Shown here one piece after another: positions 3,530 to 17,589 of a stretch of DNA of 64,000 nucleotides. Within the stretch, counting starts at the first letter, position 1; every line of letters begins with the position of its first letter. Made by a program: the position numbers and the translations under genes. The DNA is from Kitasatospora sp. NBC_00240 (GTDB lineage: Bacteria > Actinomycetota > Actinomycetes > Streptomycetales > Streptomycetaceae): the NCBI RefSeq assembly GCF_026342405.1, contig NZ_JAPEMU010000001.1:1674001-1738000 (forward strand). Reading direction: 5' to 3'. Below the pieces are notes generated by a model. The model did no database searches. It worked only from the letters and a program-made list of their open reading frames with translations, and was not told the DNA's origin.

Positions 3530-4591
3530 TCACCGCTGCGGCGCCGGCCCGGTGCTGCCGCGGACCACCAGGGAGACGCCCAGCGGCGGGCGGTCCGCCG
3601 GCGTGTCCTCGACGACCAGTTGGACGGCCCGCTCGCCGGCCTCCTCCAGCGGCAGCCGGACGGTGGTCAGGGCCGGCCGCAGGTCCACGGCGAAGGGGAC
3701 GTCGTCGAACCCGACCACCGAGATGTCACCCGGGACGGCCCGGCCCAGATCGTCCTGCACCGCGGCCAGCACGCCGGCCGCCATCACGTCGTTCAGGGCC
3801 AGCACGGCGGTGAGGCCCGGTTCGCGGGCGAGCAGCCCCAGCGCCGCCTCGCGGCCGCCGGCCCGGGTGAAGTCGGCGAACACCACGTGACTGTCGGGCA
3901 GTTCACCGCCCAGCTGGGCCAGTGCCCGGCGGGCGCCGGCCAGCCGCTGCTGCACGGTGATCAGCTCCTCGGGGCCTGCCACCACGCCGATCCGCCGGTG
4001 GCCGAGCCGCCAGAGTTCGGTCGCCGCCCGGGCGGCTCCCTCGGCGTGGTCCAGCGGGACGGCCGGCCCGGCGCCGCGCTCGCCGATGCAGGCCACCCGG
4101 CCGCCGTCCTCGCGGAAGCCGTCCAGTTCGGCCGCCAGCCGGTCGGTGAGCGAGCGGTCGTCCGTACCGCTGCCGGCCAGCAGCAGGGCGCGGGCGCGCT
4201 GGGCGCGCAGGCTGCGGACGTACTCGATCTCCAGCTCCGGGTCGCGGAAGGTCGCGGCGATCATGATCATCAGGCGTTGGCGGCGGGCGGCCCGCATCGC
4301 GCCCGCCGCGATGGCGGCGAAGTACGGGTCGGCGACGTCGTGCACGATCAGCCCGACCACCGAGGTCGCCGAGCGAGCCAGCGCCTGGGCGGGCGCGTTG
4401 GAGACGTAGCCCAGCTCCCGCGCGGCGCTCTCCACCCGCCGGCGCAACTCCTCGCCGACCGTGCGCGAGCCGCCGCCGTGCAGCACCCGGGAGGCGGTGG
4501 CAATGGACACCCCGGCGTGCTCCGCGACGCGCTGCAGGGTGACGGCGCCGGTGGACCGGCCGGCGCGAGTGGTTGACCTGGGGTTCGCCAT
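3530..4591 (-). CDS. LacI family transcriptional repressor
   Basis: A 353-residue LacI/GalR protein. The N-terminal HTH is VTLQRVAEHAGVSIATASRVLHG with hinge region ELGYVSNAPAQALARSATSVVGLI; the periplasmic-binding-protein-like sugar sensor follows and ends in the usual VVGFDDVPFAVDLRPALTTVRLP block. It is divergent from the sugar-catabolic operon starting at 4723. The palindrome GGTAAGCGCTTACC (4610-4623), a canonical LacI-family operator, lies 19 bp upstream of its ATG. The same palindrome recurs before the GH35 gene at 15790, so this protein probably senses a sugar released by that pathway and represses both units and itself. Confidence 0.92.
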   Translation of the reverse strand: MANPRSTTRAGRSTGAVTLQRVAEHAGVSIATASRVLHGGGSRTVGEELRRRVESAARELGYVSNAPAQALARSATSVVGLIVHDVADPYFAAIAAGAMRAARRQRLMIMIAATFRDPELEIEYVRSLRAQRARALLLAGSGTDDRSLTDRLAAELDGFREDGGRVACIGERGAGPAVPLDHAEGAARAATELWRLGHRRIGVVAGPEELITVQQRLAGARRALAQLGGELPDSHVVFADFTRAGGREAALGLLAREPGLTAVLALNDVMAAGVLAAVQDDLGRAVPGDISVVGFDDVPFAVDLRPALTTVRLPLEEAGERAVQLVVEDTPADRPPLGVSLVVRGSTGPAPQR

Positions 4592-4609: not shown

Positions 4610-4623
4610 GGTAAGCGCTTACC
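4610..4623. promoter_or_regulatory. LacI operator, copy 1
   Basis: Perfect 14-bp palindrome GGTAAGCGCTTACC with the central CG of LacI-family sites. It lies in the 131-bp divergent region between lacI (start 4591) and the Gfo/Idh/MocA operon (start 4723). An identical site is at 15722-15735. Confidence 0.85.
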
Positions 4624-4722: not shown

Positions 4723-5874
4723 ATGGCCATCCGGCCGATCGGCATCATCATGAACGGCGTCACCGGACGCATGGGCTACCGCCAGCACCTGGTCCGGTCG
4801 ATCCTCGCGATCCGCGAGCAGGGCGGGCTCGTACTGCCGGACGGCACGGTCGTCCACCCCGAGCCCGTGCTGGTCGGCCGCAACGAGGACCGGCTGCGGG
4901 CCATCGCCGAACGGCACGGCATCGAGCAGTGGACCACCGACCTCGACAAGGCGCTCGCCGACCCGGCCAACGAGATCTACTTCGACGCCCAGCTGACCCA
5001 GGTCCGGGAACAGTCGATCCGGGCCGCGATCGCCGCCGGCAAGCACATCTACACCGAGAAGCCCACCGCCGAATCGCTCGACGCGGCCCTGGAGTTGTCG
5101 CGGCTGGCGCGGGCCGCCGGGGTCCGCGACGGCGTGGTGCAGGACAAGCTCTTCCTGCCCGGCCTGCGGAAACTGAAGCGGCTGGTGGAAAGCGGCTTCT
5201 TCGGCCGGATCCTCTCCGTCCGGGGCGAGTTCGGCTACTGGGTCTTCGAAGGCGACTGGCAGAGCGCCCAGCGCCCGTCCTGGAACTACCGGGCCGAGGA
5301 CGGCGGCGGCATGGTGCTGGACATGTTCCCGCACTGGCAGTACGTCCTGGAGCAGACCTTCGCCCCGATCACCTCGGTGTACGCGCACACCGCCACCCAC
5401 ATCCCGGAGCGCCGGGACGAGGCGGGCCGCCCCTACCCGGCCACCGCCGACGACGCCGCCTACGGCATCTTCGAGCTGGAGGGCGGCATCGTGGCCCAGA
5501 TCAACTCCTCCTGGGCGGTGCGGGTCGACCGGGACGAGCTGGTCGAGTTCCAGGTCGACGGCACCGAGGGCAGCGCCGTCGCCGGACTGCGCAACTGCCG
5601 CTTCCAGCACCGGGCCGGCACCCCCAAGCCGGTCTGGAACCCGGACCTGCCGGTCACCGAGCCGTTCCGCGAGCAGTGGCAGCAGGTGCCCGACAACGCC
5701 GAGTTCGACAACGGCTTCAAGGCCCAGTGGGAGCAGTTCCTGGCCCATGTGGTCGCGGACGCGCCGTTCCCCTACGACCTGCTGGCCGGTGCCAAGGGCG
5801 TCCAACTCGCCGAGCTGGCGCAGGAGTCGGCCCGAACCGGCCAGCGGCTGCCGATTCCGCCGCTGGCCCGCTGA
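4723..5874 (+). CDS. Gfo/Idh/MocA family sugar oxidoreductase
   Basis: A 383-residue NAD(P)-dependent dehydrogenase, first gene of a four-gene operon. The dinucleotide-binding region begins IGIIMNGVTGRMGYRQH and the family's conserved E-K-P triad is at residues 112-114 (YTEKPTAE). The C-terminal half is the Gfo_Idh_MocA beta-sheet domain (DGGGMVLDMFPHWQYVL). Such enzymes oxidise a sugar or inositol hydroxyl, often at C3 or C1, to a keto sugar or lactone. The ATG at 4723 follows AAGGAG. The operator at 4610-4623 is 100 bp upstream. The substrate is not known; the partner genes suggest catabolism rather than biosynthesis. Confidence 0.9.
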   Translation: MAIRPIGIIMNGVTGRMGYRQHLVRSILAIREQGGLVLPDGTVVHPEPVLVGRNEDRLRAIAERHGIEQWTTDLDKALADPANEIYFDAQLTQVREQSIRAAIAAGKHIYTEKPTAESLDAALELSRLARAAGVRDGVVQDKLFLPGLRKLKRLVESGFFGRILSVRGEFGYWVFEGDWQSAQRPSWNYRAEDGGGMVLDMFPHWQYVLEQTFAPITSVYAHTATHIPERRDEAGRPYPATADDAAYGIFELEGGIVAQINSSWAVRVDRDELVEFQVDGTEGSAVAGLRNCRFQHRAGTPKPVWNPDLPVTEPFREQWQQVPDNAEFDNGFKAQWEQFLAHVVADAPFPYDLLAGAKGVQLAELAQESARTGQRLPIPPLAR

Positions 5875-5927
5875 GCCACTCCCGGCCGAAGTCCCCGACC
5901 TCCCGCCCGCCAGATTCGAGGCCAGTC

Positions 5928-7091
5928 ATGTCCGACGAGATCCTGCTCCCCCGGCCCTCCGGGGAGCTCCTGCGCTACCGGGTCCCCGAGCCGCCGTCCT
6001 GGCCCGCGCCGGGCGGCCCGGCCCGCAGCCGCACCGTGTTCGCGGCCGCCCACGTGGTCGCCGACCCCGCCCGGGAGCACCGGCCGGGCGCGCCCGCCGC
6101 GCTCGACTGGGAGGCCACCCTGGCCTTCCGCGAGCACCTGTGGTCGCTCGGACTGGGCGTCGCCGACGCGATGGACACCGCACAGCGCGGCATGGGCCTG
6201 GACTGGGCCACCACCCGCGAGCTGATCACCCGCTCCGGCGCCGCCGCCCGGGCCTGCGGCGGGCGGCTGGCCTGCGGCGCGGGGACGGACCAACTGACCG
6301 TCACGGCACCCGGCTTGAAGGAGATCACCGAGGCCTTCCAGGAGCAGGTGGAGGTGGTCGAGGCAGCCGGGGCCCAGGTGATCCTGATGGCCAGCCGGGC
6401 ACTGGCCGCCACCGCGACCGGCCCGGAGGACTACGCCGAGGTCTACGGCCGACTGCTGGCCGGGACGGACCGGCCGGCCGTCCTGCACTGGCTCGGCACA
6501 CCCTTCGACCCGGCCCTGGAGGGCTACTGGGGATCGGCCGACCTGGACGAGGCGGCCGCCCACGTGCTGGAGATCATCCGCGACAACGCGGCCAAGGTGG
6601 ACGGCATCAAGGTCTCCCTGCTGGACGCCGACCGGGAGATCGCGCTGCGCCGCGCGCTGCCCGAGGGCATCAAGATGTACACCGGCGACGACTTCCACTA
6701 CCCGGAGCTGATCCTCGGCGACGACCGCGGCTTCAGCCACGCCCTGCTGGGGGTCTTCGACCCGCTCGCCGGCCACGCCGCGGCCGCCCTGGACGCCCTG
6801 GACCGGGGCAACACCGCCGCGTACCGGGCGATCCTCGACCCCACCGTGCCGCTGGCCCGGCACATCTTCGGCGCGCCGACCCGCCACTACAAGACCGGCG
6901 TGGTCCTGCTGGCCCATCTCGCCGGCCACCAGGACCACTTCACCATGGTCGGCGGCGAGCAGGACAGCCGCGACGTCGTCCACCTCGCCGAGGTGTTCCG
7001 CCTGGCCGGGGAGGCCGGGGCGCTGCCCGACCCGGACCTCGCGACCGCGCGGATGCGGGCCTTCCTCGCCTCGAAGGGAGTGGCCGCATGA
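5928..7091 (+). CDS. DUF993 family, dihydrodipicolinate-synthase-like protein
   Basis: A 387-residue protein matching the DUF993 family, whose members have a TIM-barrel fold related to DapA-type aldolases. Recognisable blocks are TAQRGMGLDWATTRELI, GAGTDQL, VILMASRALAA and GIKVSLLDADREI; the conserved lysine in KVSLL is a candidate Schiff-base residue by analogy with DapA (inference). The ATG at 5928 follows GAGG at about 6 nt; longer in-frame starts overlap the upstream gene. Its stop overlaps the next start in ATGA (7088-7091), so the two proteins are probably made in fixed ratio. A plausible role is carbon-carbon cleavage of the keto-sugar made by the upstream dehydrogenase. Confidence 0.85.
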   Translation: MSDEILLPRPSGELLRYRVPEPPSWPAPGGPARSRTVFAAAHVVADPAREHRPGAPAALDWEATLAFREHLWSLGLGVADAMDTAQRGMGLDWATTRELITRSGAAARACGGRLACGAGTDQLTVTAPGLKEITEAFQEQVEVVEAAGAQVILMASRALAATATGPEDYAEVYGRLLAGTDRPAVLHWLGTPFDPALEGYWGSADLDEAAAHVLEIIRDNAAKVDGIKVSLLDADREIALRRALPEGIKMYTGDDFHYPELILGDDRGFSHALLGVFDPLAGHAAAALDALDRGNTAAYRAILDPTVPLARHIFGAPTRHYKTGVVLLAHLAGHQDHFTMVGGEQDSRDVVHLAEVFRLAGEAGALPDPDLATARMRAFLASKGVAA

Positions 7092-7975
7092 CCGCCGGCA
7101 CCCTTCCCCGCCCGGCCGGCGGCCCGAACGCCGCCCCCGGGCTCGAACGGCTCTCGCTCAACACCGCCACCACCAAGCGCTGGACCCTCCCCGAGGCCGT
7201 CGACGGCTGCGTACGGGCCGGCATCCCCGGCATCGGACTGTGGCGCGACCGGGTCGCCGAGACGGGCGCCGCGAAGGCCGCCCGACTGGTCCGCGACGCC
7301 GGGCTGACCGTCACCAGCCTCTGCCGCGGCGGCTTCCTCACCGCGCCGGACGCCGCCGGGCGGGCCGCCGCCCTGGACGACAACCGCCGCGCCGTCGAGG
7401 AGGCGGCGACGCTCGGCACCGGCGTGCTGGTCCTGGTCTGCGGCGGACTGCCCGAAGGCAGCCGCGACCTGCCCGGCGCGCGCCGCGCGGTCGCCGACGC
7501 GCTCGCCGAACTCGCTCCGTACGCCGGGGAGCACGGCGTCCGGCTGGCGATCGAACCACTGCACCCGATGTTCTGCGCCGACCGGGCCGTGGTCTCCACC
7601 CTCGGGCAGGCCCTGGACCTCGCCGAGGCGGTCGGGGCCCGGACGGGCGAGAACGGGGTGGGCGTGGTCGTCGACACCTACCACGTCTGGTGGGACCCTC
7701 AGGTGGAGGAGCAGATCGCCCGCGCGGCCGACCGGATCCTGGCCTTCCAGGTCTGCGACTGGACGCTGCCGCTGCCCGCCGACGCGCTGCTCGGCCGCGG
7801 CCACGTCGGCGACGGTCTGATCGACATCCCGCGGCTGGCGGCCGCCGTGACCGCCGCCGGATACACCGGGTTCACCGAGGTGGAGATCTTCAACCAGGAG
7901 GTCTGGGACACCCCGGGCGACCTGACCCTGCGTACCCTCGTCGAACGCCACCGCACCCACCTCGCCCGGATCTGA
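7088..7975 (+). CDS. Sugar phosphate isomerase/epimerase (xylose-isomerase-like TIM barrel)
   Basis: A 295-residue protein of the AP-endonuclease-2/xylose-isomerase-like fold. The metal-binding acidic and histidine residues characteristic of the fold are visible in AIEPLHPMF, VVVDTYHVWWDP, FQVCDW, GRGHVGDGLIDIP and TEVEIF. Members include isomerases, epimerases, 3-keto-glycoside lyases and dehydratases, so the exact reaction is open. It overlaps the DUF993 gene by ATGA. In this operon it likely rearranges or eliminates the keto-sugar produced by the first gene before the DUF993 protein acts. Confidence 0.87.
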   Translation: MTAGTLPRPAGGPNAAPGLERLSLNTATTKRWTLPEAVDGCVRAGIPGIGLWRDRVAETGAAKAARLVRDAGLTVTSLCRGGFLTAPDAAGRAAALDDNRRAVEEAATLGTGVLVLVCGGLPEGSRDLPGARRAVADALAELAPYAGEHGVRLAIEPLHPMFCADRAVVSTLGQALDLAEAVGARTGENGVGVVVDTYHVWWDPQVEEQIARAADRILAFQVCDWTLPLPADALLGRGHVGDGLIDIPRLAAAVTAAGYTGFTEVEIFNQEVWDTPGDLTLRTLVERHRTHLARI

Positions 7976-8080
7976 CACCCGCACCGGGCGCCCCGGCACA
8001 CCGGCCCGGCCCCACCGCCCACGCGGGACGGGGGCCGGGCCCGCCGCCGGAGCGCCTTCGTCCCGTCCCCGGAGGACTTC

Positions 8081-9280
8081 GTGAACCCTCGCACCGCCCG
8101 TCGCTTCCTGGTCGCCCCCGACAAGTTCAAGGGTTCGCTGACCGCCGCCCGGGCGGCCGACCACCTCGCCGCCGGACTGCGCGACCGGGCCCCGGGGGCG
8201 GCCGTGCGCGTGCTGCCCGTCGCCGACGGCGGGGAGGGCACGGTGGACGCCGTGGTGGCGGCCGGGTTCGAGCGCCGCACCCTGCTGGTCGAGGGCCCGC
8301 TGGGCAACCCGGTCGAGGCCTCCTTCGCGCTGCGCGACCGGACGGCGGTGGTCGAGCTGGCCCAGGCCTCCGGTCTCGACCGGCTGCCCGGCCGGCGGCC
8401 CGACCCGCTACGGGCCGGCACCCGCGGCACCGGGCAACTGATCGCCGCCGCACTCGACGCGGGCGCCGGGACGGTCGTGCTCGGCGTCGGCGGGAGCGCC
8501 TCGACGGACGGCGGCACCGGAATGCTCACCGCCCTCGGCGCGCGCTTCACCGACGCCGCCGGCCACCCGCTCGCCCAAGGCGGCGGGGCGCTGGCCGGGT
8601 TGGCGCGGGCGGACCTGTCCGGGCTCGACCCCCGGCTGGCCGCGACCAGGATCGTGCTGGCGAGCGACGTGGACAATCCGCTGCTCGGGCCGGACGGCGC
8701 CGCCGCCGTGTACGGCCCGCAGAAGGGGGCCTCCACCCAGCAGGTCCGGCAGCTGGAGCAGGGTCTGCGCCGGCTGGTCGAGGTGCTGGCCGGACCGGCC
8801 GGGGCGGCGGCCCGGCGGCCCGGGGCCGGCGCGGCAGGCGGCACCGGGTTCGCCGCGCTGGCCTGCCTGGGGGCCGTCCGCCGTCGGGGCATCGACGTCC
8901 TGCTGGAGGCCACCGGCTTCGGCCCGGCGCTCGCCGCCACCGACCTGGTGATCACCGGCGAGGGCTCGCTCGACGCGCAGACCCTGCAGGGCAAGGCACC
9001 CGCCGGGGTGGCCGCCGCCGCCCGGCGGCAGGGCGTGCCGGTGGTCGCGGTCTGCGGCCGGCTCAGCCTGGACGCGGCGGGCCTGGCGGCCCTCGGCGTC
9101 AGCCGCGCGTACCCGCTCAGCGCCCTGGAGCCCGACCCGGCGCGCTCGATGGCCGGGGCCGGCCCGCTGCTGGAGCGGCTCGGTGCCCGGATCGCGGAGG
9201 ACTTCGGCGCGGGCCCCCGACAGCCGGGCCCCCGCGACCCGGGCAACACCCCCGCGCCGGGTGTCGGACCCGTTGACTAG
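8081..9280 (+). CDS. Glycerate kinase (GlxK/GarK family)
   Basis: A 399-residue type-1 glycerate kinase. The signatures are APDKFKGSLTA at the N-terminus, LPVADGGEGTVDA, GVGGSASTDGGTGML (phosphate-binding), LASDVDNPLLGP and VITGEGSLDAQT. It phosphorylates D-glycerate with ATP, feeding the product into glycolysis. The GTG start at 8081 has a clear ribosome site (GGAGGA, 8071-8076). The gap to the upstream gene is 105 bp, so it may be co-transcribed. Its presence implies that the pathway ends in glycerate, for example after aldol cleavage of a C6 aldonate or keto-acid (inference). The C-terminal ~25 residues are Pro/Gly-rich and probably disordered. Confidence 0.92.
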   Translation: MNPRTARRFLVAPDKFKGSLTAARAADHLAAGLRDRAPGAAVRVLPVADGGEGTVDAVVAAGFERRTLLVEGPLGNPVEASFALRDRTAVVELAQASGLDRLPGRRPDPLRAGTRGTGQLIAAALDAGAGTVVLGVGGSASTDGGTGMLTALGARFTDAAGHPLAQGGGALAGLARADLSGLDPRLAATRIVLASDVDNPLLGPDGAAAVYGPQKGASTQQVRQLEQGLRRLVEVLAGPAGAAARRPGAGAAGGTGFAALACLGAVRRRGIDVLLEATGFGPALAATDLVITGEGSLDAQTLQGKAPAGVAAAARRQGVPVVAVCGRLSLDAAGLAALGVSRAYPLSALEPDPARSMAGAGPLLERLGARIAEDFGAGPRQPGPRDPGNTPAPGVGPVD

Positions 9281-9290
9281 GCTCCACGGC

Positions 9291-9797
9291 ATGTCCGACG
9301 CTCACGACCACACCTGCTCCTGCTGCGCCGAGCCGCAGTCCGGCCCGCCGATGTCCTACGGCGCCCCTGCCCCCGTGGTCTGGAAGGACCGGTACGCCCG
9401 GCGCCGGGACAGCGAGCTGACCGCCGACGTCTGCATGATCAAGGGGAAGCACTTCTTCGTGCACGGTCTGGTGGAGATCCCGGTGCTCGACAGCGGCGAG
9501 GTCTTCTCCTGGGGTGTGTGGGTCTCCCTCAGCGAGCCGAACTTCGCCCGCACGCACGACCTGTGGGAGGACCCGGCGCGCGAGCAGGAGCCGCCGTACT
9601 TCGGCTGGCTCACCACCGAGCTGCCCGTCTACGCCGAATCGACACTGAACCTCAAGACCCACGTCCGCACCCGGGCCGTCGGCCTGCGCCCGCTGATCGA
9701 ACTCGAACCCACCGACCACCCGCTCGCGGTGGAACAGCGGGAGGGCATCACCATGGCCCGGGTCCACGAGCTGGCCGACCGGCTGCTGCGGGGCTGA
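9291..9797 (+). CDS. DUF2199 domain-containing protein
   Basis: A 168-residue soluble protein matching DUF2199. It begins with a Cys-rich segment (HDHTCSCCAEP) and carries the family blocks VHGLVEIPVLD, FSWGVWVSLSE and HPLAVEQREGIT. The function of the family is unknown. No good ribosome site precedes the ATG at 9291; a TAGGCT-like -10 about 10 nt upstream suggests a leaderless transcript (inference). It starts 10 bp after the glycerate kinase stop and could also be read through from that operon. Confidence 0.8.
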   Translation: MSDAHDHTCSCCAEPQSGPPMSYGAPAPVVWKDRYARRRDSELTADVCMIKGKHFFVHGLVEIPVLDSGEVFSWGVWVSLSEPNFARTHDLWEDPAREQEPPYFGWLTTELPVYAESTLNLKTHVRTRAVGLRPLIELEPTDHPLAVEQREGITMARVHELADRLLRG

Positions 9798-11502: not shown

Positions 11503-11781
11503 TCAGGCTGACCGGTCGATGTCTCCCGGACCCACCGGGTGGGCGAAGGGGAGCCGAGGGTCCAGCGCTCGAGCTCGTCGGCTGCGGCCGCCGCCATCCG
11601 GCAGCTCGCCGCCCAGGGAGCCGGCGACGTGCGGGGTGAGCAGCACGTTCGGCAGGTCGTAGAGCGGGGAGTCGGCCGGCAGCACCTCGGGGACGGTGAC
11701 GTCCAGCACCGCGTTCAGCCGGCCCGCGGTCAGCTCGGCGACCATGGCGTCCTGGTCGATCAGCGACCCACGGGAGGTTCC
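11503..11781 (-). pseudogene. Remnant of a D-isomer-specific 2-hydroxyacid dehydrogenase (C-terminal part)
   Basis: The minus strand encodes SRGSLIDQDAMVAELTAG, then LDVTVPEVLPADSPLYDLP and NVLLTPHVAG. These are the catalytic-Arg, Asp/Glu and His regions of the NAD-binding domain of 2-hydroxyacid dehydrogenases. Everything N-terminal of the SRGSLID block is missing. Downstream of VAGSLGGEL the natural continuation (MAAAAADELERWTLGSP) is in another frame and the last residues (GPGDIDRSA) return to the first, implying two small indels. The piece abuts a truncated VOC-domain remnant on the opposite strand at about 11790. Confidence 0.75.
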
Positions 11782-11797
11782 GGCGACGATCGCGGCC

Positions 11798-11878
11798 GGC
11801 GGACGTCTGCTGAGCGACGCCGAGGCGCCGTCGAACTACGTGCTGGCCGACCCCGAGGGCAACGAGGCGTGCGTCGGC
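11798..11878 (+). pseudogene. Remnant of a VOC/glyoxalase-like protein (C-terminus)
   Basis: The plus strand reads LLSDAEAPSNYVLADPEGNEACV, the terminal strand and DPEGN-E-CV signature of glyoxalase/bleomycin-resistance (VOC) proteins. Nothing upstream continues the domain; the sequence switches into the opposite-strand dehydrogenase remnant at about 11790. The frame stays open past the fragment into a Gly/Arg-rich repeat, so the native stop is also lost. Confidence 0.6.
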
Positions 11879-12006: not shown

Positions 12007-13119
12007 TCACTCCCCCTGTGCCGGCCCCTCGGCAGGCACCGCGGCGACCTGGGCGCCGCAGGAGCCGCGGACCTTCAGGCCGGCCAGCAGCTCGATGTGG
12101 TGGACGGGCAGCGAGGCGCCGCCGCCGAGCCGGCGCAGCAGCAGGTCCAGGGCGGCCCCGCCGACCGCCCGCTTGGGCGGGGCGACGGCCGTCAGCGGCG
12201 GCGCCGCCAGGGCCGCGAACACGTCGTCGTAGGAGATCAGCGCCAGGTCGTCCGGGATCCGCAGGCCGCGGGCCCGCATCAGCGGCGCCAGCTGGATGGC
12301 GTCCTGGTCGTTGTGGACGAGCGCGGCGCGCACGCCCTGCCCGACCGCCCGGGCGATCTGGTCGGCCACGTACTCCAGGTCCGGCGCGGCGGCGGTCGCC
12401 CCGGGCCCGGCCAGCCGGATGTCGGTCACCGGGTACGCCTCCATGCCCAGGTACTGCATGCCCTTGGCGTAGCCGGTCCGGACCCGCTGCGCCGTCCAGG
12501 TGTCCTCGCGGGCGGCCAGCAGCACCGACCGGTGGCCGAGCGAGGCGAGGTGGCGCAGGGCCAGCAGCACGCCGTGCTGGTGGTCGGAGGAGACCGCGTC
12601 CAGCTCCGCGCCGGCCGTACCCGGCCGGGCCTTGCGCTCCACCAGGACGGTCGGCACCGGGAGTTCGGCCAGCCACTCGCTGTCGGCGGGCCGGCTGCCG
12701 GGCCGCCAGTTGGGGGTGAGCAGCAGTCCGTCCACGCCGGACTCCAGCAGGCGCTCCACCTGGGCCCGGTCGTCGCGGGCCTCGTAGGGCGAGATCGCCA
12801 GCACGAGCTGGGCGCCGGCGGTGGCCGCGGAGGCGCGGGCGCCGGCGATCACCTCGTTGAAGTACGAGGCCACCGTGGGCACCAGCATGCCGATCACCCG
12901 GTCGCGGCCCTCGGGTTTGCCGAACGCCCCGGTGTCGGGGAGCGCGACCGAGCCGTGCACGCGGTGCAGCAGGCCGGCGTCCGCCAGCGCGGCGACGTCG
13001 CGGCGGGCCGTGACGGCGGAGATCCCGATCCGGGCGGCCAGGTCCACCACCCGTACGGTCCCGGCGTCGCGCACCACCTCAAGGATCCGCGCGCGGCGTT
13101 CCTCGGACGAGAGGGTCAT
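12007..13119 (-). CDS. DeoR-type HTH / LacI-type sensor hybrid regulator
   Basis: A 370-residue regulator. Residues 1-55 form a DeoR-type winged helix (RRARILEVVRDAGTVRVVDLAARIGISAVTARRDVAAL). From about residue 70 on it carries a LacI-type periplasmic-binding-protein-like domain (IGMLVPTVASYFNEVIAGA, GVDGLLLTP, SSDHQHGVLLALRHLASLGHRSVLL, ISYDDVFAALAAPPLTAVAPP). It is divergent from the secreted beta-helix protein (13554). The intergenic region holds two copies of TGATCGAGT-N-ATAC-like sites (13175-13226) that could be its operators. It is probably a sugar-responsive regulator of the adjacent polysaccharide genes. Confidence 0.88.
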   Translation of the reverse strand: MTLSSEERRARILEVVRDAGTVRVVDLAARIGISAVTARRDVAALADAGLLHRVHGSVALPDTGAFGKPEGRDRVIGMLVPTVASYFNEVIAGARASAATAGAQLVLAISPYEARDDRAQVERLLESGVDGLLLTPNWRPGSRPADSEWLAELPVPTVLVERKARPGTAGAELDAVSSDHQHGVLLALRHLASLGHRSVLLAAREDTWTAQRVRTGYAKGMQYLGMEAYPVTDIRLAGPGATAAAPDLEYVADQIARAVGQGVRAALVHNDQDAIQLAPLMRARGLRIPDDLALISYDDVFAALAAPPLTAVAPPKRAVGGAALDLLLRRLGGGASLPVHHIELLAGLKVRGSCGAQVAAVPAEGPAQGE

Positions 13120-13553: not shown

Positions 13554-15554
13554 ATGTTCCTGCCCCGCCCCCACCGGCTCAAGGCGTTCGCCGTCGGCGC
13601 CGCCCTGACCGCCGCCCTGGGCGCGCTCAGCGCCCCGCCCGCGGCGTCCGCCGCCCCCACCACCTGGTACCTGGACTGCGCCGCGGGCAGCGGCGGCTCC
13701 GGCAGCCAGGCCACCCCCTGGAACAGCCTTGCCGCCGCCAACGCCCACCTGTTCGGCCCGGGCGACCAGCTGCTGCTCAAGCGTGGCAGCACCTGCACCG
13801 GCACCCTGAAGCCCCAGGGCTCCGGCACCGCCGGCGCTCCCGTCACCCTGGCCGCCTACGGCCCCGGCAGCGCCCGCCCGGTGGTCGCCGGCGACGCCGC
13901 CACCGGCGAGAAGGCCGCCGTCCACCTCTACAACGTGGAGCAGTGGGAGATCCGCGACCTGGAGATCACCTTCCAGGACACCGGCGCCGCCAGGAAGGAG
14001 CGCAACGGCCTGCTGGTCGAGATCGCCGACCTCCCCGACGGGGTGGGCACCCACTACGTGGTCGACGACGTCCACGTGCACGACGTCAACGGCGACAACG
14101 GGAAGTTCAGCAACGGGATCCAGTTCCGGGTCAGCGGTGCCACCACCCCGACCAACTTCGACGACGTCCTGGTGCAGAACTCCCGGATCTCCCGGGTGGA
14201 CCGCGAAGGCCTCACCAACCGCTCGACCTGGATGTGCCGCCCCTCCTACGGCAGCGGCGACGGCTGCGGCAGCACCGTCAACTGGCGGGCCAGCACCCGG
14301 ATCGTCTTCCGCGGGAACACCCTGAACGACATCGGCGGCGACGGGATCGTGGTGCGCGCGGCCGACCACGCGCTGGTCGAGCACAACACCGCCTACGACC
14401 TGGCGATGCGCCCGATGGGCTCCAACGCCGGTATCTGGACGATCAATTCGGACCGGTCGACGATCCAGTACAACGAGGTGCACCACGTCCGCCGGCTGTC
14501 CGACAACAACGACGGCATGGCCTTCGACTCCGACTACGGCAACACCGACGCGCTGTTCCAGTACAACCACAGCCACGACAACGAGGGCGGCTTCATGCTG
14601 TTCTGCGGGGCCTGCGGCGCGGGTTCCAGCAGCACGGGGACGGTCGTCCGGTACAACCTGAGCAGCAACGACAGGACGCGCTGGCTCTTCGCGGTCGGCG
14701 AGAAGAACGCCCGGATGTACAACAACACCGCCTATCTGCCGCCGGGTTCGACCGCGCCGGTGATCCAGCAGGGCGGCGGCAGCTCGGTCACCCGGCTGAG
14801 CGGCAACATCTTCTCCAACCTCGGCACCGGCGGGTACTCCGGCTGGGGCGGCAACGCCTACAAGCCCGCCGACTTCAGCTGGGACTCCAACGTCTTCCAC
14901 GGCAACCACCCCGCGAACGAACCGGCCGACCCGCGCAAGGTCACGGCCGATCCGGGCCTGCTGAACCCGGGCGGCAGCACCGCCGCCGACTACCGGCTGG
15001 GTGTCGGCTCCCCCGCCCGCGGGGCCGGCGCCACCGTCGCGGCCAACGGCGGGCTGGACTGGTTCGGCTCGGCGGTGCCGGCCGTCTGCCGCCCCGACAT
15101 CGGCTTCCATCAGGCGAGTTCCTTCGACGACGCCGCCTGCTCGGCCGCCGACCTGGTGGGCAACCCCGGCTTCGAGACCGGCGCCCTGGCCCCCTGGACG
15201 TGGTACGGCGGCGCGGTCGCCGACCCGGCGGGCGCCCACACCGGCGGCTTCGGCGTCCGGGTCGGCCCCTCGCCGGCCGCCGCCGAGCAGGTCGTCACGG
15301 TCGCGCCCAACACCACGTACCGGCTGTCGGGTTGGGGCAGGGTGTCGGCCACCGGCACCGAGGTCTCGCTCGGGGCCAAGCAGTACGACGCCGCCGGCTC
15401 CAGCACCAGGGCCGGCTTCACCGCGACCACGTACGCCCTGGGCAGCACGCAGTTCACCACCGGCCCGGGCGCGACGACGGCCAGAATCTACTGCTACGCC
15501 CGCAGCGGCACCGGTTACGGGTACTGCGACGACATCACGCTCGTCCCGTCCTGA
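13554..15554 (+). CDS. Secreted right-handed parallel beta-helix protein with C-terminal carbohydrate-binding-like domain
   Basis: A 666-residue exported protein. Residues 1-34 are a Sec signal (basic start, hydrophobic core, APPAASAAP cleavage region). Residues about 40-520 show parallel beta-helix rungs (WEIRDLEITF, FDDVLVQNSRISRV, ADHALVEHNTAYD, DRSTIQYNEVHH, DALFQYNHSHDNEGG), as in pectate-lyase-like polysaccharide lyases and GH28-type enzymes. From about 525 a jelly-roll module starts NPGFETGALAPWTWYGG and ends YGYCDDITLVPS, typical of CBM4/9/22-like modules. The catalytic residues cannot be assigned. The ATG 13554 is chosen because the signal peptide starts there. Likely acts on extracellular polysaccharide under control of the divergent regulator. 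Confidence 0.85.
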   Translation: MFLPRPHRLKAFAVGAALTAALGALSAPPAASAAPTTWYLDCAAGSGGSGSQATPWNSLAAANAHLFGPGDQLLLKRGSTCTGTLKPQGSGTAGAPVTLAAYGPGSARPVVAGDAATGEKAAVHLYNVEQWEIRDLEITFQDTGAARKERNGLLVEIADLPDGVGTHYVVDDVHVHDVNGDNGKFSNGIQFRVSGATTPTNFDDVLVQNSRISRVDREGLTNRSTWMCRPSYGSGDGCGSTVNWRASTRIVFRGNTLNDIGGDGIVVRAADHALVEHNTAYDLAMRPMGSNAGIWTINSDRSTIQYNEVHHVRRLSDNNDGMAFDSDYGNTDALFQYNHSHDNEGGFMLFCGACGAGSSSTGTVVRYNLSSNDRTRWLFAVGEKNARMYNNTAYLPPGSTAPVIQQGGGSSVTRLSGNIFSNLGTGGYSGWGGNAYKPADFSWDSNVFHGNHPANEPADPRKVTADPGLLNPGGSTAADYRLGVGSPARGAGATVAANGGLDWFGSAVPAVCRPDIGFHQASSFDDAACSAADLVGNPGFETGALAPWTWYGGAVADPAGAHTGGFGVRVGPSPAAAEQVVTVAPNTTYRLSGWGRVSATGTEVSLGAKQYDAAGSSTRAGFTATTYALGSTQFTTGPGATTARIYCYARSGTGYGYCDDITLVPS

Positions 15555-15789: not shown

Positions 15790-17589
15790 ATGCACCAGCC
15801 AGCCCCCCGCCTCACCCTCACCGACACCGGCTTCCTGCGCGACGGCCGGCCCCACCGGATCGTCTCCGCCGCCGTCCACTACTTCCGGGTCCACCCCGAC
15901 CTCTGGCAGGACCGGCTCCTGCGGCTGCGCGCGATGGGGGTGAACACCGTCGAGACGTACGTCGCCTGGAACGTCCACGAACCCGTACGCGGGCGCTACG
16001 ACTTCAGCGGCGGGCAGGACGTCGTGGCCTTCGTCCGTACCGCCGGCGATCTGGGGCTGGACGTGATCGTCCGGCCGGGGCCGTACATCTGCGCCGAGTG
16101 GGAGTTCGGCGGCCTGCCCGGCTGGCTGCTCGCCGAGCCCGGGATGCGGCTGCGCCGGGTCAACACCCCGTACCTGGCCGCCGTGGACGCCTGGTTCGAC
16201 GTCCTGGTGCCCGTCCTGCTCCCGCTGCTCGCGGGCAACGGGGGCCCGGTGGTCGCGATGGGCGTCGAGAACGAGTACGGCAGCTACGGCAACGAGACGG
16301 CGTACCTGGAGCACCTGCGCGCGGGCCTGGTCCGACGCGGCGTCGACTGCCTGCTGTTCACCGCCGACGGCGCAGCCGACGGGTTCCAGCTCGGCGGACG
16401 GCTGCCCGGGCTGCTCACCACCGGCACCTTCGGCTCCCGCCCGAAGTCCGCGCTGGACTGCCTCCGCCGGCACCAGCCGACCGGGCCGCTGGTCTGCATG
16501 GAGTTCTGGCACGGCTGGTTCGACCACTGGGGCGAGCCGCACCACACCCGGGACGCCCGGGAGGCGGCCGCCGTGCTGGACGAACTCCTCGCAGCAGGCG
16601 CCTCGGTGAACATCTACATGGGTCACGGCGGCACCAACTTCGGCTGGTACAACGGCGCCAACCACACCGGGCAGGTCTACCAGCCGACCGTCACCAGCTA
16701 CGACTACGACGCCCCGGTCGGCGAGGCGGGTGAACTCACCGAGAAGTTCCACCGCTTCCGCGAGGTGATCGAGAAGCACACCGGCCCGGTCGCCCACACT
16801 CCCCCGCCGCCGCCCGCCCGACTGACCCCGCGAAGCATCGTCCCGGACGCGCGGGCCGCCCTGCTGCCCGCGCTGGACGCGCTGGCCGAGCCGGCGTACC
16901 GCTCCGAGCCCGAGCCGATGGAGTCGCTCGGCCAGTCCCTCGGCCTGATCCACTACCGCACCCGGCTGCGCGGCCCGCTGGAGCACGTGGAGCTGCGGGT
17001 CGACGGCCTCGCCGACCGCGCCCAGGTCTTCCTGGACGGGGTGGAGCTGGGCGTGCTCGACCGCAACCGGCCCGGCCAGGCGCTGCCGCTGACCGTCCCG
17101 GCCCACGGCGCCGAACTCAACCTCCTGGTGGAGAACTTGGGCCGGATCAACTACGGCCCGCTGCTCGCCGACCGCAAGGGCATCACCGGCGGGGTCCGGC
17201 TGGACAGCCAGTACCAGTTCGGCTGGGAGATCCGCCCGCTGCCGCTCACCGACCTCTCCGCGCTGCCGTTCGAGGAAGATCCGGCTCCGTCCGGCATCCG
17301 GCCCACCGGCCCGGCCTTCCACCGGGCGGTGCTGGACCTCGACGCGCCCGCCGACGGCTTCCTCGCCCTGCCCGGCTGGGGCCGGGGCACGCTCTGGCTC
17401 AACGGCTTCGCGCTCGGCCGCTACCGGGAGGAGGGGCCGCAGCGCACCCTGTACGCGCCCGCGCCGCTGTGGCGGGCCGGGCGGAACGAGATCGTCGTGC
17501 TGGAGCTGCACCGCCCGGGCCCCGCCGTCGAACTGCGGGACACCCCCGACCTCGGCCCGGCCGAACCGGCCCCGATCCCGGCCTGGTGA
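15790..17589 (+). CDS. GH35 beta-galactosidase
   Basis: A 599-residue glycoside hydrolase family 35 enzyme without a signal peptide, so cytoplasmic. The N-terminal TIM barrel shows AAVHYFRVHPDLWQDRLLR, AWNVHEP and PGPYICAEWEFGGLPGWLL. Glu162 in VENEYGSYG is the predicted acid/base and Glu238 in CMEFWHGWFDHWG the nucleophile, by analogy with human GLB1. The C-terminal beta-sandwich region includes GWGRGTLWLNGFALGRY. It cleaves terminal beta-galactosyl residues from imported oligosaccharides. Operator copy 2 is just upstream, which links it to the LacI regulator at 3530. Confidence 0.93.
   Translation: MHQPAPRLTLTDTGFLRDGRPHRIVSAAVHYFRVHPDLWQDRLLRLRAMGVNTVETYVAWNVHEPVRGRYDFSGGQDVVAFVRTAGDLGLDVIVRPGPYICAEWEFGGLPGWLLAEPGMRLRRVNTPYLAAVDAWFDVLVPVLLPLLAGNGGPVVAMGVENEYGSYGNETAYLEHLRAGLVRRGVDCLLFTADGAADGFQLGGRLPGLLTTGTFGSRPKSALDCLRRHQPTGPLVCMEFWHGWFDHWGEPHHTRDAREAAAVLDELLAAGASVNIYMGHGGTNFGWYNGANHTGQVYQPTVTSYDYDAPVGEAGELTEKFHRFREVIEKHTGPVAHTPPPPPARLTPRSIVPDARAALLPALDALAEPAYRSEPEPMESLGQSLGLIHYRTRLRGPLEHVELRVDGLADRAQVFLDGVELGVLDRNRPGQALPLTVPAHGAELNLLVENLGRINYGPLLADRKGITGGVRLDSQYQFGWEIRPLPLTDLSALPFEEDPAPSGIRPTGPAFHRAVLDLDAPADGFLALPGWGRGTLWLNGFALGRYREEGPQRTLYAPAPLWRAGRNEIVVLELHRPGPAVELRDTPDLGPAEPAPIPAW

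What the first reader, a model, noticed from the sequence alone, without database searches (positions are those of the whole stretch)
4723..9280. Possible undescribed sugar-degradation pathway ending in glycerate
Four linked genes encode a Gfo/Idh/MocA dehydrogenase, a DUF993 TIM-barrel protein of unknown activity, a xylose-isomerase-fold enzyme and glycerate kinase. A route can be imagined: oxidation to a keto-sugar, rearrangement or elimination, aldol-type cleavage by DUF993, then phosphorylation of the glycerate formed. The reaction of DUF993 has, to my knowledge, not been established, and no standard pathway uses this combination.
Basis: inference. Interest (0 to 1): 0.72.

Follow-up and report, generated by a model that had tools for sequence, protein, structure and literature searches.

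The report
Uncharacterised sugar-acid breakdown operon with DUF993
An actinobacterium carries a conserved but apparently never-tested set of enzymes, sharing a control site with genes for enzymes that cut acidic polysaccharides, that probably breaks a sugar acid down to glycerate using an aldolase-like protein of unknown function.

Summary
In detail: LacI, Gfo/Idh/MocA, DUF993, xylose-isomerase-fold (TIM) and glycerate kinase genes lie together. The conserved unit is the trio Gfo-DUF993-TIM (158 of 170 DUF993 loci). Yet it directly follows TIM in 24 of 26 loci of the window's genus, is in 0 of 40 control regions, and seems recruited repeatedly: two PF02595 lineages and an unrelated MOFRL-type kinase in proteobacteria. 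A D-2-hydroxyacid dehydrogenase joins in 14 of 26 genus loci, suggesting hydroxypyruvate to glycerate to phosphoglycerate.

The operator GGWAAGCGCTTWCC occurs three times in the 10.4-Mb genome: before this operon, before a GH35 gene at 15,790, and before a PL8 polysaccharide lyase 6.6 Mb away. Some relatives place PL8, GH35 or DUF2264 (glucuronate-dehydratase-like) genes by the trio. DUF993 folds like DHDPS/NAL Schiff-base lyases, with an invariant lysine on strand 6, but lacks their carboxylate motif.

Most likely: a LacI-controlled pathway degrading a uronic or related sugar acid to glycerate, with DUF993 as carbon-carbon lyase. Substrate and reactions are unproven.

The parts
3530..4591 (-). 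LacI-family regulator, probably of this operon
   Evidence: PF00356, PF13377, PF00532; a LacI gene within 6.5 kb of DUF993 in 14 of 26 genus, 21 of 28 other actinobacterial and 70 of 80 collection loci
4610..4623 (.). operator GGTAAGCGCTTACC
   Evidence: one of three GGWAAGCGCTTWCC sites in the 10.4-Mb genome; AAGCGCTT-centred sites upstream of Gfo in 14 of 15 Gfo promoters read
4723..5874 (+). Gfo/Idh/MocA NAD(P)-dependent dehydrogenase
   Evidence: Pfam; closest solved structure 3oqb, named only 'Oxidoreductase'; E112-K113-P114, D200 and H204 invariant among 160 aligned sequences, window included
5928..7091 (+). DUF993, putative Schiff-base C-C lyase
   Evidence: PF06187; AF2 model pLDDT 92.5; 4dnh Z 55.7, DHDPS-family chains Z about 30; K228 on strand 6 and H187 invariant in 170 of 170 aligned, window included
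7088..7975 (+). xylose-isomerase-like TIM barrel (isomerase/epimerase type)
   Evidence: PF01261; closest structures 7vpf, 3ju2 (SMc04130), 3qc0; E156, D196, H199, E264, E266 invariant among 167 aligned sequences
8081..9280 (+). glycerate kinase (PF02595)
   Evidence: in a tree it groups with the genome's other PF02595 kinase (100/100), not with 18 operon kinases of its genus
11506..11832 (-). C-terminal remnant of a D-2-hydroxyacid dehydrogenase gene, whole at this place in the closest relatives found
   Evidence: residues 253-360 of 360 only; whole gene there in L261 and hit of similar strength in L263
15722..15735 (.). second exact copy of the operator
15790..17589 (+). GH35 glycosidase gene with the operator in its promoter
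   Evidence: PF01301 1e-111; homologues (71% and 63% identical) directly after TIM in L064 and L266
17861..20086 (+). NAGLU-type alpha-N-acetylglucosaminidase, possibly in the same transcript as GH35 (271-bp gap, no operator of its own seen)
   Evidence: PF05089, PF12972; promoter read; co-transcription not tested

Best explanation
The operon is the intracellular end of a LacI-controlled pathway for an acidic sugar, most likely a uronic acid or its derivative released with the help of a PL8 lyase and a GH35 glycosidase. Proposed steps. (1) The Gfo enzyme oxidises a hydroxyl or hemiacetal to a keto acid or lactone (family inference). (2) DUF993 forms a Schiff base through K228 and splits a carbon-carbon bond in a retro-aldol reaction (inference from fold and invariant lysine). 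(3) The TIM enzyme isomerises either the keto substrate before the cleavage or the three-carbon product after it (inference). (4) The three-carbon acid, hydroxypyruvate or tartronate semialdehyde, is reduced to glycerate by the D-2-hydroxyacid dehydrogenase, which is encoded beside the trio in many genus members and at another locus in this genome. (5) Glycerate kinase makes phosphoglycerate. Shown here by sequence: gene order, conservation, fold, shared operator, and glycerate kinases of separate lineages in the same place. Not shown: any substrate, any reaction, or their order.
For: Trio in 158 of 170 loci. Glycerate kinase directly after TIM in 24 of 26 genus loci (one, L246, only partly held at a contig end), none in 40 controls. 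Separate recruitments: the window clade groups with the genome's other PF02595 kinase at 100/100, apart from an 18-row genus operon clade at 99/96 (several long branches, midpoint root); an unrelated MOFRL kinase in L148 and L149 (Pfam) and in L201 and L205 (tblastn). D-2-hydroxyacid dehydrogenase within 6.5 kb in 14 of 26 genus loci, plus L039 and L051. Operator: 3 genomic sites, before this operon, GH35 and PL8+CBM96. PL8 next to the trio's operon in L051 and L244 and a few genes away in L266; DUF2264, whose solved relatives are named glucuronate dehydratase (two) and beta-galactosidase (one), in 12 of 26 genus regions. L047 and L048: trio in one gene run with a 5-dehydro-4-deoxyglucarate-dehydratase-type gene (over a subfamily model's cut-off in L047), a talarate/galactarate-dehydratase-like gene (below cut-off) and an NAD-epimerase-family gene that could be a uronate dehydrogenase (recalled). 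DHDPS-type fold, invariant K228 on strand 6.
Against: Most DUF993 loci lack a nearby glycerate kinase (134 of 170) and D-2-hydroxyacid dehydrogenase (154 of 170). DUF993 lacks the GTTGE-type carboxylate motif and strand-5 tyrosine of DHDPS/NAL enzymes (motifs recalled; strands), so a pyruvate-type aldolase mechanism is uncertain; profile comparison with DHDPS relatives was not significant. Proteobacterial variants with acyl-CoA-dehydrogenase, SDR, CoA-transferase or AroE-like genes fit a plain uronate pathway poorly. PL8 lies 6.6 Mb away and the operator core is typical of LacI-family sites (recalled), so other LacI proteins could act there. PL8, GH35 and DUF2264 genes are rare next to the trio outside the window's genus. 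The genome shows only a 79-position partial match to the unsaturated glucuronyl hydrolase family, leaving release of the uronate unexplained.
Confidence: 0.5

Rival explanations
1. The trio opens a glycosidic or anhydro bond by transient oxidation (3-keto-sugar chemistry): Gfo oxidises, TIM eliminates or isomerises, DUF993 hydrates or rearranges without carbon-carbon cleavage. Glycerate kinase serves a glycerate group or a by-product.
For: Gfo shows weak NCBIfam similarity to levoglucosan dehydrogenase and disaccharide 3-dehydrogenase models; ThuA-type genes inside the gene run in L253 (Pfam) and L211 (tblastn); second Gfo-type genes of one cluster in 7 loci.
Against: No model cut-off is reached; ThuA is in few loci; a DHDPS-type barrel with invariant lysine is unusual for hydrolysis; the hydroxyacid dehydrogenase plus kinase pair points to a C3 acid.
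Confidence: 0.2
2. The module acts on alicyclic hydroxy acids (cyclitol-, quinate- or shikimate-like); uronate genes are lineage-specific partners.
For: AroE-like gene beside DUF993-TIM in Paraburkholderia; acyl-CoA dehydrogenase with best matches to acryloyl-CoA reductase and cyclohexane-1-carbonyl-CoA dehydrogenase models, below cut-off, and a CoA-transferase in Sagittula; TIM is weakly like QuiC; carboxylate-type (Tct) transporter in L156, and transporters that I take for Liv and Ssu types by eye or recall elsewhere.
Against: PL8, GH35, DUF2264 and sugar ABC genes in the window's genus; the QuiC match is far below cut-off.
Confidence: 0.15
3. Glycerate kinase is an unrelated neighbour; the trio has another product.
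For: GlyK absent within 6.5 kb in 134 of 170 loci; in the window it has a 105-bp gap and its own ribosome-binding site.
Against: 24 of 26 genus loci adjacent, 0 of 40 controls, kinases of separate lineages and two unrelated families at the same module.
Confidence: 0.1

Closest known systems
garD-garL-garR-garK route of glucarate/galactarate catabolism (E. coli; recalled)
   Same: Sugar acid cleaved by an aldolase to a C3 acid, reduced to glycerate and phosphorylated by a PF02595 glycerate kinase (the window kinase matches NCBIfam's glycerate 2-kinase model NF007668 at 3e-83, 280 bits against a cut-off of 686; that this model is GarK is recalled).
   Different: DUF993 (DHDPS-type fold) in place of GarL; a D-2-hydroxyacid dehydrogenase, not a GarR-type enzyme, in the relatives; Gfo and a xylose-isomerase-type TIM added; a LacI gene beside it.
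S. meliloti SMc04130 / SMc04132 / SMc04133 gene group
   Same: Close relatives of TIM (3ju2, SMc04130) and DUF993 (4dnh, SMc04132); SMc04133 is called a putative oxidoreductase.
   Different: No assay found; PMC12542648 (one passage seen) lists SMc04132 and SMc04133 in a table of a study of the regulator PhaR. A second paper that held the string 4dnh (PMC13209948, search listing only) was not opened.
DHDPS/NAL superfamily of class I aldolases
   Same: Fold (Z about 30); lysine on strand 6.
   Different: No GTTGE-type motif, histidine-tryptophan instead of the strand-5 tyrosine (motifs recalled); 12-18% identity in the structural alignments shown.
Chondroitin degradation locus of Bacteroides caccae with glucuronate dehydratase (PMC12269599, passages seen, including part of the abstract)
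   Same: A DUF2264 protein of a relative (L255) matches the solved glucuronate dehydratases 9nwf and 9o4u; uronate chemistry linked to a polysaccharide lyase.
   Different: That system uses a GH88 unsaturated uronyl hydrolase; only a partial GH88/GH105 match was found in this genome. The term DUF993 is in no paper of the held library.

Membership tests
DUF993 (PF06187) | Pfam model match over cut-off | tested here: met
   590 bits against a cut-off of 24, nearly whole length
DHDPS/NAL class I aldolase family | DHDPS-type TIM-barrel fold | tested here: met
   model pLDDT 92.5; Z about 30 over about 285 residues to many DHDPS chains
DHDPS/NAL class I aldolase family | Schiff-base lysine on strand 6 | tested here: inconclusive
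   a lysine is there: K228 lies in strand 224-230 and is invariant in 170 of 170; the alignment to DHDPS puts lysine on lysine but is not significant; Schiff-base formation itself cannot be tested here
DHDPS/NAL class I aldolase family | GTTGE-type carboxylate motif after strand 2 and tyrosine on strand 5 (recalled) | tested here: not met
   AMDTAQRG after strand 2; H187-W188 on strand 5
DHDPS (PF00701) sequence family | Pfam match | tested here: not met
   only DUF993 reported at E 0.001
Gfo/Idh/MocA dehydrogenases | Pfam domains and EKP / DxxxH catalytic motifs (motifs recalled) | tested here: met
Glycerate kinase family PF02595 | Pfam and TIGR00045 match over cut-off | tested here: met
   421 bits against 23.3; 377 against 168; 2- or 3-kinase specificity not testable
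garL-type aldarate pathway | class II aldolase GarL plus GarR reductase genes in the operon | tested here: not met
   neither is among the operon genes; elsewhere in the genome not tested
KduI-KduD route for unsaturated uronates | KduI (PF04962) in the genome | tested here: not met
   0 matches in the own genome, 6 of 14 control genomes positive; other isomerase types not tested

The most novel reading that the evidence does not exclude
DUF993 founds a new class of Schiff-base lyases that release hydroxypyruvate (or tartronate semialdehyde) instead of pyruvate from an oxidised uronic acid. With Gfo and TIM it forms a glycerate-making route for uronic acids that replaces the KduI-KduD-KdgK-Eda route after PL8 polysaccharide lysis, and the same DUF993-TIM core has been re-wired with other dehydrogenases for other acids in proteobacteria.
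Probability: 0.3. Interest if true: 0.75.

Novelty: new variant of a known kind. Interest (0 to 1): 0.6.

Why it matters
A family known only as DUF993, with a crystal structure released in 2012 (4dnh) but no function found here, is placed in a concrete metabolic setting. The trio is found in records from Actinomycetota, Pseudomonadota and Gemmatimonadetes. The setting predicts assays that are simple to run, a regulon of three sites, and a polymer class to grow the bacterium on. If right, it adds a glycerate-forming branch to uronic-acid metabolism and corrects annotations such as 'dihydrodipicolinate synthase family protein', the name most of the annotated plasmid copies listed carry.

Tried and rejected
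Glycerate kinase as part of the conserved core: rejected (36 of 170 loci, one of them, L041, on the other strand). The kinase as mere chance neighbour: thought unlikely (0 of 40 controls; separate lineages). Sequence link of DUF993 to DHDPS by profile comparison: not significant, so the claim rests on fold. Loss of the hydroxyacid dehydrogenase in this strain: first thought, then corrected, because an intact relative (76% identical) lies with transporter, DUF2264 and regulator genes at C1:885-893 kb. My first gene-level scan found no kinase in loci L064-L143; the tblastn scan found 2 of 80 (L106, L135), and the latter is used. Controls were not empty for other families: within 20 kb, one region had a weak D-2-hydroxyacid dehydrogenase hit (L279, 90 bits), and a few had LacI or acyl-CoA-dehydrogenase hits. 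Operator search with one mismatch gave one hit of the reversed control pattern on each strand, the relaxed exact pattern none.

Paper searches for DUF993, its Pfam/InterPro names, structure codes, S. meliloti locus tags and pathway word sets gave no functional study; only an open-access library was searched, without supplements. Loci without Gfo (11 of 170) or without TIM (4 of 170) were kept in all counts. Dropped before counting: one region (L061) with a marginal PF06187 match and no DUF993 hit in my scan, and three fragment matches of two genus genomes (G728, G733) that were not fetched at length. The window itself is not among the 170. The 80 collection loci are the best 80 of 591 (a capped list) and lean to close relatives; the 9 plasmid loci were chosen from 60 listed of 147 records; the kinase tree holds 31 rows, and 3 genus operon kinases (L248, L262, L264) and the partial L246 were not in it.
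Full report
What is there. The window lies at 1,674,001-1,738,000 of contig C1 of a 10.4-Mb genome. Between 3.5 and 9.3 kb there is a divergent LacI gene, then Gfo/Idh/MocA, DUF993, a xylose-isomerase-like TIM barrel and a PF02595 glycerate kinase on the + strand. DUF993 and TIM overlap at ATGA; glycerate kinase follows after 105 bp. The genome has one DUF993 and two PF02595 kinases.

Conservation. DUF993 was found in 29 of 396 genomes drawn from the phylum, 27 of 70 of the window's genus and 25 of 289 of the class of Harenicola maris, each count including the centre genome; and in 147 of 72,556 plasmid records. I examined 170 loci that carry DUF993: 26 of the genus, 27 other loci of the phylum sample, 80 from a named genome collection (mostly Streptomyces, the best of a capped list), 26 of the class sample, 9 on plasmids and 2 others; a few are duplicates. 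TIM lies within 6.5 kb in 166, Gfo in 159, both in 158. The order Gfo-DUF993-TIM is kept in nearly all actinobacterial loci. Eleven loci lack Gfo. In seven of them other oxidoreductase genes stand nearby, in varying sets: SDR with an acyl-CoA-dehydrogenase-type gene (L148 S. meliloti pSymA, L153 Sagittula, L154 Rhizobium, L206), SDR without it (L201, L205), or an AroE-like gene (L151 Paraburkholderia); CoA-transferase or electron-transfer-flavoprotein genes go with several. L191, L194, L204 (a contig end) and L209 were not resolved; L191, L194 and L201 also lack a TIM hit, as does L060.

Glycerate kinase. It is within 6.5 kb of DUF993 in 36 of 170 loci (35 on the same strand), so most relatives lack it there. 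But it directly follows TIM in 24 of 26 genus loci (L246 only in part, at a contig end), and also in L045, L046, L106, L135 and the Paracoccus plasmid L149; 40 control regions have none. The two genus exceptions are L253 and L266; L266 has GH35 in that place. The kinases of L149 and L148 are MOFRL-type (PF13660 + PF05161), as are those of L201 and L205 by tblastn; blastp found no similarity between this type and PF02595. In a tree of 31 PF02595 kinases the window's enzyme and those of L261 and L263 group with the genome's other kinase, L211 and L041 (100/100), apart from 18 other genus operon kinases (99/96) (several branches are long and the root is at the midpoint). I read this as the same slot being filled more than once, which is the best evidence that glycerate is a true product.

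The reductase step. Fourteen of 26 genus loci, and L039 and L051, carry a D-2-hydroxyacid dehydrogenase near the trio (Pfam-checked in L241 and L039, the rest by tblastn). In 12 of the 14 it stands between a sugar ABC transporter and Gfo. Hydroxypyruvate reductase is one known activity of this family (recalled); the closest models are phosphoglycerate dehydrogenase and glyoxylate reductase, all below cut-off. In L261 and L263, the closest relatives found (LacI 96-97%, Gfo 95-96% identical), this gene and the transporter follow downstream of glycerate kinase on the other strand, then DUF2264. In the window only the last 108 codons remain, at 11,506-11,832, followed by a different set of genes. 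An intact relative (76%) lies at C1:892 kb with a transporter, DUF2264 and a regulator related to the one at 12,007, and a further protein that looks TIM-barrel-like by eye, so the step is not missing from the genome.

The regulon. A perfect palindrome, GGTAAGCGCTTACC, lies between LacI and Gfo. Its relaxed form GGWAAGCGCTTWCC occurs three times in the genome, the reversed control pattern none: here, 55 bp before the GH35 gene at 15,790, and at C1:8,266,209, about 107 bp before a PL8 polysaccharide lyase with CBM96. AAGCGCTT-centred sites stand before Gfo in 14 of the 15 Gfo promoters I read (chosen from a larger number; L045 is the exception). In Streptacidiphilus (L064) and one genus member (L266) a GH35 homologue follows TIM directly; PL8 genes lie next to the operon in L051 and L244 and a few genes away in L266; DUF2264 is in 12 of 26 genus regions. 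These genes are rare beside the trio outside the genus. The L255 DUF2264 protein matches solved structures named glucuronate dehydratase (two) and beta-galactosidase (one); a 2025 paper (PMC12269599, passages seen, including part of the abstract) proposes that GH154 enzymes are uronate dehydratases. That DUF2264 equals GH154 is recalled and fits. In L047 and L048 the trio is in one run with genes like 5-dehydro-4-deoxyglucarate dehydratase (over a subfamily cut-off in L047), talarate/galactarate dehydratase (below cut-off) and an NAD-epimerase-family protein that could be a uronate dehydrogenase (L048 by similarity to L047). All this points to uronic or related sugar acids. KduI is absent from the genome, only a 79-position GH88/GH105 match is present, and two PF01081 (KDPG-type) aldolases exist.

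DUF993 itself. The AlphaFold model (pLDDT 92.5) matches 4dnh, a hypothetical protein of S. meliloti, and then DHDPS-family enzymes. K228 lies on strand 6, where these enzymes carry the Schiff-base lysine (recalled), and is invariant in all 170 aligned sequences, window included, as are D83, T84, R87, H187, W188, D254 and D255 (170 or 171 aligned). The carboxylate motif and the tyrosine of pyruvate-type members are replaced. So it may work like a class I aldolase but should not be filed as a DHDPS/NAL family member.

Mechanism. Two chemical schemes fit. (a) A 4-deoxy-5-keto-uronate from lyase action is oxidised at C1 by Gfo; DUF993 cleaves 5-keto-4-deoxyglucarate into pyruvate and tartronate semialdehyde; TIM converts this to hydroxypyruvate (it is weakly like the hydroxypyruvate isomerase model, far below cut-off); the dehydrogenase and kinase finish. 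(b) Gfo and TIM make a keto acid that keeps its hydroxyl next to the keto group, and DUF993 releases hydroxypyruvate directly. The lost pyruvate-type motif favours (b) slightly; linkage to lyase and dehydratase genes favours (a). Neither is tested.

Judgement.

Noticed in passing
11506-11832: Remnant of a D-2-hydroxyacid dehydrogenase gene where the closest relatives found have the whole gene followed by a sugar ABC transporter and DUF2264; the window carries other genes from there on.
   Followed up: yes
12007-13119 and 13554-15554: A regulator with a DeoR-type DNA-binding part and a LacI-type sensor part, next to a beta-helix protein with a CBM; relatives of the regulator (63-67% identical) stand beside the DUF993 operon in L255 and L260 and at C1:885 and 894 kb of this genome.
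   Followed up: partly
L185 12504-13556 (also L187, L192, L193, L196, L197, L199, L200, L203): A second, weakly DHDPS-like family (about 350 aa, PF00701 at 1e-5 in L185) is found near DUF993 in these loci; its LYTGNDD and AIK motifs resemble those of DUF993 by eye and may bridge the two families, though the profile comparison was not significant.
   Followed up: partly
L148, L153, L154, L206: DUF993-TIM with acyl-CoA-dehydrogenase-type and SDR genes, and in some CoA-transferase or ETF genes, in place of Gfo: a different chemistry around the same pair.
   Followed up: partly
genome G008, C1:379764-380957 (L027, L030): DUF993 appears in three pieces in different frames, probably a decayed or mis-sequenced copy.
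   Followed up: no
9261-9797: DUF2199 protein directly after glycerate kinase; a gene of similar size follows the kinase in L261 and L263 (not scanned). Function unknown.
   Followed up: no
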